DNA from: Paenibacillus sp. UNC451MF
Lineage (GTDB): Bacteria > Bacillota > Bacilli > Paenibacillales > NBRC-103111
Assembly (NCBI RefSeq): GCF_000686845.1
Contig: NZ_JMLS01000025.1
Coordinates: forward strand, 55,230-119,229
Length of the DNA stretch: 64,000 nucleotides
Direction of reading: 5' to 3'
The notes beneath the pieces were generated by a model. That model was not told where the DNA came from. It saw only the letters and a list, made by a program, of their open reading frames with translations, and did no database searches. This document shows, piece by piece, positions 7,768 through 60,751 of this stretch. Each line of letters starts with the position of its first letter. Position 1 is the stretch's first letter. Both the position numbers and the translations under genes were made by a program.

Positions 7768-8196
7768 ATGGAGCAGCATATGTCTTCTTTGCTCGGCTTT
7801 TGGATGAAACGGGCTTACCGTGATATTTGCAATTATCTGGACAGCCGTCTGGAGCCTTATGGACTGACCAATTCGCAATTGGGCGTACTGATGATGCTTT
7901 GGGAACAGGACGGGCTTACGCAAACCGATATTCAGAAGATGCTCGGCATCCAGCCCGCTTCTATGACACATTTAATCAAGGGGCTGGAGCATAAGCAGCT
8001 TGTTACGCGCAGCGGAGATCCGAATGACTCCCGGGTCAAACGTTTGTATGTCACTGAGCAGGGCAAGGCTCTGGAACAGCCGTGCATGGCTATTGTACTG
8101 GAGGGTGAGGATAAAATGCGCAGCGGCTTTTCTTCGGATGAGGCTATCATTATGCGAACTTGGATTCAAAAGGTCATGAGCAATTTGAACTCCTGA
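7768..8196 (+). CDS. MarR family transcriptional regulator
   Basis: 142 residues with the winged-helix fold of MarR proteins: LTNSQLGVLMMLWEQDGLTQ, the recognition helix region MLGIQPASMTHLIKGLE and the wing RSGDPNDSRVKRLYVTEQG. ATG 7768 has AATGAGGT at 5-nt spacing; ATG 7756 overlaps that site, and ATG 7780 remains possible. The stop codon lies in the loop of the first hairpin of a fold-back repeat (8187-8430). The gene upstream of the AhpD-like protein in the same orientation makes that gene a candidate target, because its promoter carries a MarR-type palindrome. Confidence 0.88.
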   Translation: MEQHMSSLLGFWMKRAYRDICNYLDSRLEPYGLTNSQLGVLMMLWEQDGLTQTDIQKMLGIQPASMTHLIKGLEHKQLVTRSGDPNDSRVKRLYVTEQGKALEQPCMAIVLEGEDKMRSGFSSDEAIIMRTWIQKVMSNLNS

Positions 8197-8430
8197 ATAG
8201 GAGTTCATTTATTTAGAAACCCGTGGACGATTAGAAGTGTGTGGTACTCCGGTGGGGTATCCCCTTCCGGTCGCTGTTGTTATAGGGAAATTTTTAATTT
8301 TATTTTTAGTGGTAATTTCCCGATAACAAAGGCGAACGCTTTCGCTCCTCCAGGGAATACCCCACCTCCACCTTTAACCCTCTTCTGAAAATAGGATTTC
8401 TTTAAAGACTGAACTCCTGAACAGGAGTTC
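8187..8430. repeat. fold-back repeat, copy A (structured, MITE-like)
   Basis: A 244-bp segment that can fold on itself almost end to end. The outermost parts are two hairpins of the same sequence type, GAACTCCT-GAAT-AGGAGTTC (8187-8206) and GAACTCCT-GAAC-AGGAGTTC (8411-8430), 224 bp apart. Inside lie an outer stem GGTGGGGTATCCCC (8251-8264) / GGGAATACCCCACC (8353-8366) and an inner stem GTTATAGGGAAATT (8279-8292) / AATTTCCCGATAAC (8314-8327) with one mismatch. Linkers hold CGCTGTTG and CAAAGGCGAACG, and the loop holds TTAGTGG; all three motifs recur in copy B at 30266-30513. No protein is encoded; a 63-codon minus-strand frame across it is fortuitous. Confidence 0.75.
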
Positions 8431-8437
8431 TTTTTAT
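8411..8437 (+). terminator. T-tailed terminator hairpin at the right end of repeat A
   Basis: GAACTCCT / AGGAGTTC stem with a GAAC loop followed by TTTTTATTT. It probably terminates the marR transcript if the first, T-poor copy at 8187-8206 is read through. Confidence 0.7.
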
Positions 8438-30265: not shown

Positions 30266-30513
30266 AGCCCTTTAATCGTTTAGAGGGTGAGTCTGTATGG
30301 AATCCACAAGCTTGAAATATTGTTAGTATAGTCCGGTAGAATGTGCCCCTCCAGCCGCTGTTGAAACCCGTGAATTTGATTAGAATTAGTGGGATTTTCA
30401 CGGCTTTCAAAGGCGGACGTAAACTCCTCTGAGGCACATTCCACCTACCTATAGCACAATTTCACGCATAACCGGCTTCTCTATACCGAAGCCCTCTAAA
30501 TGATTAGAGGGCT
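30266..30513. repeat. fold-back repeat, copy B (structured, MITE-like)
   Basis: About 248 bp that is an imperfect inverted repeat from end to end. The first hairpin (30266-30288) and the reverse complement of the last (30490-30513) agree at 20 of 23 positions. The outer stem is GGTAGAATGTGCCCC (30335-30349) / GAGGCACATTCCACC (30431-30445); the inner stem is TTGAAACCCGTGAA (30361-30374) / TTCACGGCTTTCAA (30397-30410). Stem sequences differ from copy A (8187-8430) yet pair as well, while CGCTGTTG, TTAGTGG and CAAAGGCGGACG are shared. The starts of the two end hairpins are 224 bp apart, as in copy A. Confidence 0.75.
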
Positions 30514-60399: not shown

Positions 60400-60540
60400 C
60401 AATGAAAATCAAAGATAATGCGTCATGTTTCCGTTTTCACAACGGCTGCCTAGCCAAAATCGATTTTAAAACCATTTAGCCGCATTTTACTTTCAAAGCT
60501 CATCGGCGTATGATACGGATCAACAACCTCATACGCCTTA

Positions 60541-60700
60541 CAAAATCGCTTAATTTCCGTTATGGAAAGCGGGGGAACCATTGAATTCATCTCTCCGGTC
60601 CAGTGGCCGGTAGGATGGTTCGCGGGGTGAATCCTGAAACCTTCAGGTAGGGCGCTCTCAAGCCCGAATCCGACAGCTAACCTCGTCTGCGTTTTGAGAG
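60541..60700 (+). ncRNA. c-di-AMP riboswitch (ydaO/yuaA type)
   Basis: The conserved ydaO/yuaA core is present in order: GCGGGGGAACC (60569-60579), GCGGGGTGAATCC (60622-60634), AGGTAGGGC (60645-60653), AGCCCGAATCCGACAGCTAA (60661-60680) and CCTCGTCTGCGT (60681-60692). This matches the B. subtilis ydaO leader closely. A terminator hairpin follows at 60752-60792 and then a gene, so ligand binding should lower expression of the downstream gene. Aptamer edges are approximate. A 103-codon minus-strand frame across it is fortuitous. Confidence 0.92.
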
Positions 60701-60751
60701 AATACCGCGTTTCGTGCTGCCATCTGACGGGTAATGACCCCCAATGGCTCG

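What the first reader, a model, noticed from the sequence alone, without database searches (positions are those of the whole stretch)
8187..8430. Fold-back repeat with covarying stems and conserved unpaired motifs (copy A against copy B)
Copies A and B are both built from an outer stem of 14-15 bp and an inner stem of 14 bp. The inner stems share little sequence (GTTATAGGGAAATT against TTGAAACCCGTGAA), yet each pairs with its own partner, and each has a single mismatch about midway. The linkers and loop are conserved instead: CGCTGTTG, TTAGTGG and CAAAGGCG-A/G-ACG. Such covariation is what selection on an RNA or single-stranded DNA structure would leave. I do not know a named family for it.
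Basis: seen in the sequence. Interest (0 to 1): 0.8.

Follow-up and report, generated by a model that had tools for sequence, protein, structure and literature searches.

The report
Terminator-splitting mobile repeat with folded core
This roughly 200-letter repeat, present in dozens of copies in a Paenibacillus-like genome, sits between two copies of a hairpin that likely ends transcription, is likely moved by an IS1182-type enzyme, and carries a folded core whose base pairs changed together across species, likely because the fold helps the element spread.

Summary
Copies A (8187-8430) and B (30266-30511) belong to a dispersed family: 43 copies extracted here, two partial; 76 covariance-model matches. 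The hairpins at 8187-8206 and 8411-8430 are two copies of a terminator-like target. Of 43 copies, 34 could be scored; 27 of these have flanking duplications above the 99th percentile of mismatched flanks. Relatives hold empty sites with one hairpin. The end repeats resemble those of IS1182 fragments in this genome, which also abut hairpins, so this reads as an IS1182-type miniature transposon.

The core covaries: 91.3% of cells pair, against 38.7-47.0% when slid. The same core lies in a miniature transposon with unrelated ends and in the leader of an IS1182 element of a relative. No Rfam match. What the core does, and whether as RNA or DNA, is unresolved; G-U against A-C counts favour neither strand.

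The parts
8187..8206 (+). left copy of the duplicated hairpin (GAACTCCTGAATAGGAGTTC); followed by the broken T-run TTTATTTAGA of the degenerate end repeat; overlaps the MarR stop codon
8207..8222 (+). degenerate left terminal inverted repeat (family consensus GAGTCTGTCGAGAAACC)
8247..8367 (+). structured core, copy A (covariance model R1 match, 114.8 bits)
8251..8265 (+). P1 outer stem, 5' arm (pairs with 8352-8366)
8272..8292 (+). P2 inner stem, 5' arm, starting with the conserved CGCTGTTG (pairs with 8314-8334)
8314..8334 (+). P2 inner stem, 3' arm, ending with the conserved CAAAGGCG
8334..8348 (+). P4 small hairpin in the 3' linker (GC/GC stem; GT/AC in B-type copies)
8352..8366 (+). P1 outer stem, 3' arm
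8394..8410 (+). degenerate right terminal inverted repeat (family consensus GGTTTCTCGACAGACTC)
8411..8430 (+). right copy of the hairpin (GAACTCCTGAACAGGAGTTC), followed by a T-run at 8431-8435
30266..30287 (+). copy B: left copy of its hairpin (AGCCCTTTAATCGTTTAGAGGG); not terminator-like in the scan
30288..30305 (+). copy B: left terminal inverted repeat
30331..30446 (+). copy B: structured core (R1 match, 81.0 bits)
30473..30489 (+). copy B: right terminal inverted repeat
30490..30511 (+). copy B: right copy of the hairpin (AGCCCTCTAAATGATTAGAGGG), T-run follows; terminator-like in the scan

Best explanation
The fold-back at 8187-8430 is one of dozens of copies of a short repeat without a gene of its own that sits between two copies of the local terminator-like hairpin and is likely moved in trans by an IS1182-family transposase. 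Shown: the family's end repeats resemble those of IS1182 fragments in the same genome, copies lie in terminator-like hairpins, the hairpin (about 16-31 bp as aligned) is doubled around most scored copies, and empty sites with one hairpin exist in relatives. Inferred: the transposase recognises the hairpin (probably as a cruciform) and joins the element at the 5' foot of the hairpin on each strand, so that gap repair doubles it; the right copy keeps its T-run, so the gene upstream still ends there and the insertion is nearly harmless, while in most copies the left one has no T-run and the element would become part of the 3' end of the transcript (in copy A the left tail is still T-rich). Shown: the core keeps its pairing by compensatory changes and is shared by transposon backbones with unrelated ends. 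Inferred, and the weakest step (about 0.4): the folded core is a cis signal that helps the carrying element spread, at the level of a DNA hairpin or of an RNA.
For: Own-genome family: 43 match rows, 43 copies extracted, two partial, 76 R1 matches. Duplications: 27 of 34 scored copies above the 99th percentile of mismatched flank pairs; 9 of 43 not scored for want of a recognisable end repeat. Hairpins outside the ends: stems of 8 or more in 16 of 34 left and 20 of 34 right flanks against 13 of 1000 random 42-mers. Empty sites: 5 of 12 sites tested give a single match across the join in at least one of 6 relatives, 4 of them at 75-89% identity, the fifth at 70%; the L045 site has one 26-bp hairpin in two relatives and two here. 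IS1182 ends: GGGTTTCTCTACAATCTGA right, CAGGCTGTCGAGAAAG left (compared by eye), and the string GAGTAGCCTTCTAATTGAAGGCTACTC at a left end on one contig and a right end on another. No ORF of 80 aa or more inside. Covariation. Core in other backbones. Hairpin targeting is known for IS1182-family IS1272 (PMC4923244, PMC5678879, passages read).
Against: No movement was observed. The own genome shows only partial IS1182 matches, none over the NCBIfam cut-off, six of seven at or near contig ends, so an active source is not proven. IS1272, the studied relative, deletes the stem-loop and makes no duplication. Seven of 34 scored copies show no clear duplication. Copy A has degenerate ends and no clean empty site: the orthologous site of one relative holds a B-type copy and that of another is diverged. 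Several tested sites are split in relatives by about 180-280 bp and were not opened. Type II carriers have other ends and no transposase was found for them.
Confidence: 0.72

Rival explanations
1. The core is a functional RNA of the host or of the element (an unnamed structured RNA in 3' untranslated regions), and the transposon only spreads it.
For: Three-way-junction-like fold with conserved unpaired motifs and covarying stems. The reverse-complement strand folds better as RNA in 83 of 91 type II and 44 of 66 type I copies and is codirectional with flanking frames in type II (22 v 7 in G423, 28 v 6 in the G216 subset).
Against: Sporadic G-U does not exceed A-C on either strand. Type I copies in this genome show no orientation preference (++ 10, -- 8, +- 20, -+ 2, three undetermined). 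No Rfam match. No transcript data.
Confidence: 0.25
2. The core is a DNA or single-strand signal tied to replication (for instance it enters or is kept on one template strand at forks).
For: In G423, 42 of 43 listed matches fit one replichore orientation, the switch points lie near those of the GC skew, and 6 of 7 copies between ++ frames still fit.
Against: Weaker in G216 (49 of 59 listed; 30 of 41 in a subset that took all ten discordant ones, where 4 of 6 ++ copies do not fit) and G335 (35 of 48); G033 11 of 13 is not significant (307 of 2000 permutations); absent in type I genomes G011 (47 of 75, 444 of 2000) and G010 (10 of 17, 1995 of 2000). Lists are capped and some copies are local clusters, so not independent. 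Gene direction is a confounder. No Y1 transposase match in G423, G216, G000 or G011.
Confidence: 0.2
3. The paired changes come from template-switch correction of imperfect palindromes, without selection on structure.
For: Long imperfect palindromes are known to be corrected this way (recalled, not from a call); sporadic mismatches are strand-symmetric.
Against: Such correction would erase mismatches, yet the same T-G and G-A positions are kept (T-G in 68, G-A in 60 of 69 type I rows; G in 100 and A in 99 of 102 type II rows), and the linkers are among the most conserved columns.
Confidence: 0.15
4. The flanking hairpins are part of the repeat itself, as a built-in terminator pair, and not duplicated target.
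For: Strong hairpins lie outside the ends of many copies.
Against: The hairpin sequence differs from copy to copy and matches its own partner; empty sites hold one hairpin.
Confidence: 0.02

Closest known systems
IS1272 / TnSha1 (IS1182 family)
   Same: IS1182 family; inserts into hairpins, often terminators, without sequence consensus (PMC4923244, PMC5678879: abstract and passages read)
   Different: IS1272 removes the stem-loop and leaves no duplication; here the hairpin is duplicated, an outcome drawn as an alternative path in Fig 13 of PMC5678879 (legend read)
Miniature inverted-repeat transposable elements of bacteria
   Same: short, no transposase gene, terminal inverted repeats like those of a full IS, many intergenic copies
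   Different: carries a covarying core that is shared by elements with unrelated ends
ERIC, YPAL and bcr1 intergenic repeats
   Same: fold-back intergenic repeats of about 100-170 bp in tens to hundreds of copies (family tables in PMC2267715, passages read)
   Different: other hosts; no terminator duplication described in the passages read; no sequence comparison was made here
REP/REPIN elements with RAYT (Y1) transposases
   Same: small palindromic intergenic mobile repeats; TIR-flanked Y1 genes are described in PMC3733652 (passages read)
   Different: no Y1 transposase match in four element-bearing genomes

Membership tests
IS1182-derived miniature transposon | terminal inverted repeats shared with an IS1182-family element | tested here: met
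   ends of IS fragments against repeats, compared by eye, not scored; degenerate in copy A itself (3 and 4 mismatches in 12)
IS1182-derived miniature transposon | no transposase gene inside | tested here: met
   no ORF of 80 aa or more between 8196 and 8599
IS1182-derived miniature transposon | inserts in palindromes or terminators like the IS | tested here: met
   IS ends also abut hairpins
IS1182-derived miniature transposon | intact IS1182 transposase available in the same genome | tested here: inconclusive
   7 partial matches, 6 of them at or near contig ends, none over the cut-off; draft assembly
IS1182-derived miniature transposon | moved by that transposase | not testable with these tools
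   needs a transposition assay
IS1272-type stem-loop replacement | target hairpin deleted, no duplication | tested here: not met
   hairpin duplicated
Any Rfam family | match at gathering score | tested here: not met
   one match in the window, a riboswitch elsewhere; 0 in 15 loci; lax scans, give only scores far below gathering
RAYT/IS200-type mobilisation | Y1 transposase gene in genomes that bear the element | tested here: not met
   no match in 4 of 6 genomes (G000, G011, G423, G216); 8 matches in G335 and one with stops in G040
RNA structure on one strand | excess of G-U over A-C at paired positions | tested here: inconclusive
   31 of 33 pairs used in each alignment: 37 v 48 (p 0.28) and 65 v 75 (p 0.45), no excess on either strand; decay after insertion may mask it
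ERIC / bcr1 | sequence similarity to those repeats | not tested
   no reference sequence was fetched

The most novel reading that the evidence does not exclude
The core is an undescribed structure-dependent module that has captured several unrelated transposons: it rides in IS1182-type miniature elements, in miniature elements with TATATARATTGAACTT ends, and in the leader of a full-length IS1182, keeps its fold by compensatory change across Paenibacillales, and in one backbone is laid down almost only in one replication orientation, so it acts on single-stranded DNA or RNA at replication forks to promote the spread of whatever carries it.
Probability: 0.25. Interest if true: 0.85.

Novelty: new variant of a known kind. 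Interest (0 to 1): 0.62.

Why it matters
It gives a natural series of hairpin-targeted insertions with duplication and empty sites, which makes the proposed cruciform-foot model of IS1182 transposition directly testable. It also shows a covarying structural module shared by transposons with unrelated ends in one bacterial order, a kind of cargo that sequence-based repeat searches miss because the stems share little sequence. If the replication orientation of type II holds, it would point to a fork-linked step in the spread of miniature elements.

Tried and rejected
Known RNA family: no match. Y1/RAYT mobilisation: no Y1 match in four of six genomes searched. Autonomous partner of type II: all-against-all of 283 open frames next to 30 end-repeat sites showed no recurrent long frame beyond the repeat itself or one place seen from both ends; two weak matches (50% over 70 aa, 32% over 79 aa) were not identified and no frame was annotated. 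Strand choice by G-U counts: no result; by folding energy: leans to the reverse complement, not decisive. Alternative pairing of CCGCT with the loop motif AGCGG was looked at and not modelled. Clean empty site for copy A: not found. Literature: nine searches listed no paper on this repeat in Paenibacillus; the library holds open-licence papers only. ISfinder was not available; that IS1182 duplications can be 0-60 bp is recalled only.

Rows dropped or capped: of 167 copies, two over 7 mismatches and those 86% or more alike to a kept one were left out (45 kept), one weak place (L024 second) was removed by hand and seven were added by hand, giving the 51 of A1. One search left out three copies over 6 mismatches. 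Nine of 43 copies were not scored. The orientation counts use listed matches only: G216 59 of 91, G423 43 of 62, G335 48 of 79, G011 75 of 110, G010 17 of 59, G033 13 of 19. One search chose all 10 discordant G216 matches on purpose; 38 of the 40 regions gave the 41 copies.

Full report
1. Is it there? Yes. The stems, linkers and loop motifs read as described, and copy A folds far better than shuffles. Both pass a lax terminator scan; the second has TTTTT behind it, the first TTTATTTAGA. Copy B has the same layout with a quite different hairpin (30266-30287 and 30490-30511), where only the right one passes the scan.

2. A family. BLAST of copy A in its own genome gives 43 match rows. Iterated profile searches of the fetched loci gave 43 copies, two of them partial (92 and 99 nt), and model R1, built from 51 diverse copies, finds 76 in the genome (at most 150 candidates scored). 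The window lies in a 7.49-Mb draft of 73 contigs; one relative has the same length as the named record of Paenibacillus sp. H1-7. Many copies have terminal inverted repeats close to GAGTCTGTCGAGAAACC / GGTTTCTCGACAGACTC just inside the hairpins.

3. Target duplication. I aligned the 55 bases outside each end of the same copy. Of 43 copies, 34 had both end repeats at 4 mismatches or fewer; their mean score was 14.3 against 6.0 for flanks of different copies, and 27 of 34 exceeded the 99th percentile. The duplicated stretch is the hairpin itself, about 16-31 bp as aligned, with different sequence at each site. Four or more T between left hairpin and end repeat were seen in 1 of 34, while 26 of 34 have such a run on the right. 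One terminator (L008) holds two elements of different subfamilies and three hairpins.

4. Empty sites. Twelve sites were rebuilt without element and second hairpin and sought in 6 relatives. Five sites match across the join in at least one relative: L045 in three (89, 88, 78%), L032 and L013 in G011 (88, 82%), L035 in G009 (75%), L017 in G002 (70%). Other matches stop at the join or are split by about 180-280 bp, as an element would split them (for example L027, L035 and L017 in G011, L045 in G010, G001 and G008); those were not opened. Alignment of L045 shows GAGGGCGTCTGAATAAACAGACGCCC once in G011, once with one change in G009, and twice here; L032 and L035 were aligned too. Copy A gave no clean empty site: G011 has a B-type element there, G009 is diverged.

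5. The likely mover. A profile of IS1182 transposases finds 7 partial matches in this genome, six at or near contig ends, none over the cut-off. Their element ends read GGGTTTCTCTACAATCTGA and CAGGCTGTCGAGAAAG and abut hairpins; the 27-base GAGTAGCCTTCTAATTGAAGGCTACTC lies beside a left end on one contig and overlaps a right end by two bases on another, as one insertion split by the assembly would look. That IS1182-family elements insert in hairpins is published for IS1272, which deletes the stem-loop (PMC4923244, PMC5678879; abstract and passages read). [quoted passage not shown] The present family fits that path. That the IS1182 transposase moves this element is inference.

6. The core. Alignment A1 (51 copies): 21 of 27 predicted pairs have both-sided changes. 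On a named structure with P1, P2, a loop hairpin P3 and a small hairpin P4, 91.3% of cells pair against 71.0% in shuffles and 38.7-47.0% slid, with 362 both-sided cells against 138.5 and 64-141. The structure was drawn from this consensus, which favours it over slid versions, and the shuffles do not keep relatedness. Type I copies alone give 92.7% (slid 41.6-55.9%) and 164 both-sided cells against 40.2, on an alignment fitted to the model. P4 is small (2 pairs) and changes together in B-type copies. P3 is the weakest (76.7% and 79.3%). Conserved in sequence instead: TTCCGGCCGCTGTTG and CAAAGGCGGACGCTNNCGCTCCTNCA, including a kept T-G and G-A, which argues against simple palindrome correction.

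7. Distribution. The 26-base motif is in 17 of 398 Bacilli genomes, all 17 among the 38 of the same order and none among the other 360; the reversed motif in none. Two viral contigs carry it. An exact motif misses diverged copies.

8. Several backbones. In P. jilunlii the core lies in elements of 215-220 bp with ends TATATARATTGAACTT: 61 such ends at one mismatch or fewer, 0 in the reversed control; among the 30 opened, elements of 99, 149, about 259 and about 290 bp with the same ends show no core motif. In G423 three IS1182 copies with quite other ends carry an identical 117-base core-like match of 69.8 bits between left end and transposase. A third outer context occurs in G004, G012 and others. 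So the core is a module, or entered each backbone separately; which came first is unknown.

9. Strand. The reverse complement folds better as RNA in 83 of 91 type II and 44 of 66 type I copies, but G-U and A-C cells do not differ. Orientation against replichore, listed matches only: G423 42 of 43, G216 49 of 59, G335 35 of 48 (permutations as good: 0, 0 and 38 of 2000); G033 11 of 13 (307), type I G011 47 of 75 (444), G010 10 of 17 (1995). In G423 the switch points lie near those of the GC skew, sampled in 20 windows, where about 70% of frame bases lie on the leading strand. So gene direction is a confounder: 6 of 7 copies between ++ frames still follow the replichore in G423, but only 2 of 6 in the G216 subset. 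In G423, two of the three copies that do not fit are the IS1182 leader copies. I report this as a lead.

10. Verdict. A new IS1182-type miniature transposon family with whole-hairpin duplication, and a covarying core whose role is open. New variant of a known kind; the core is the novel part.

Noticed in passing
window 60537-60705: c-di-AMP (ydaO/yuaA) riboswitch, 87.8 bits, the only Rfam match in the window at gathering score.
   Followed up: no
L008 (G000:C43, about 16.4-16.8 kb): Two elements of different subfamilies inserted in the same terminator, giving three hairpins in a row.
   Followed up: partly
L321 (G011:C1:7705058-7706224): Site orthologous to copy A holds a B-type element: same flanks, other stems; independent insertion or gene conversion between copies.
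   Followed up: partly
L304-L307 (G423:C1 near 429 kb, 825 kb, 6060 kb): Three IS1182 copies carry a core-like structure in the leader before the transposase gene, identical in all three.
   Followed up: partly
G423, G216, G335: Replichore-biased orientation of type II copies, strongest in G423 (42 of 43 listed), not seen in type I genomes G011 and G010.
   Followed up: partly
L205-L234 (P. jilunlii, G040): Large family of elements with ends TATATARATTGAACTT, some without the core motif; no transposase recognised beside them.
   Followed up: partly
L067, L069, L078, L079, L087, L105: Third outer context of the core (close to GGTGTACAATCTACGTTTGTGCG), beside an ACGCC-type hairpin in several copies.
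   Followed up: no
L109:5307-5468, L203:543-703, L086:1883-2042: Core variants about 40 bases longer than usual, found by the model at 47-55 bits.
   Followed up: no
L090, L091 (viral contigs): Core copies in two contigs of the viral collection, of 19.6 and 17.5 kb.
   Followed up: no
window 8334-8347, minus strand: The P4 hairpin read on the minus strand (GCGAAAGC, a GNRA-like loop; loop class recalled) is picked up by the terminator scan with a weak tail.
   Followed up: no
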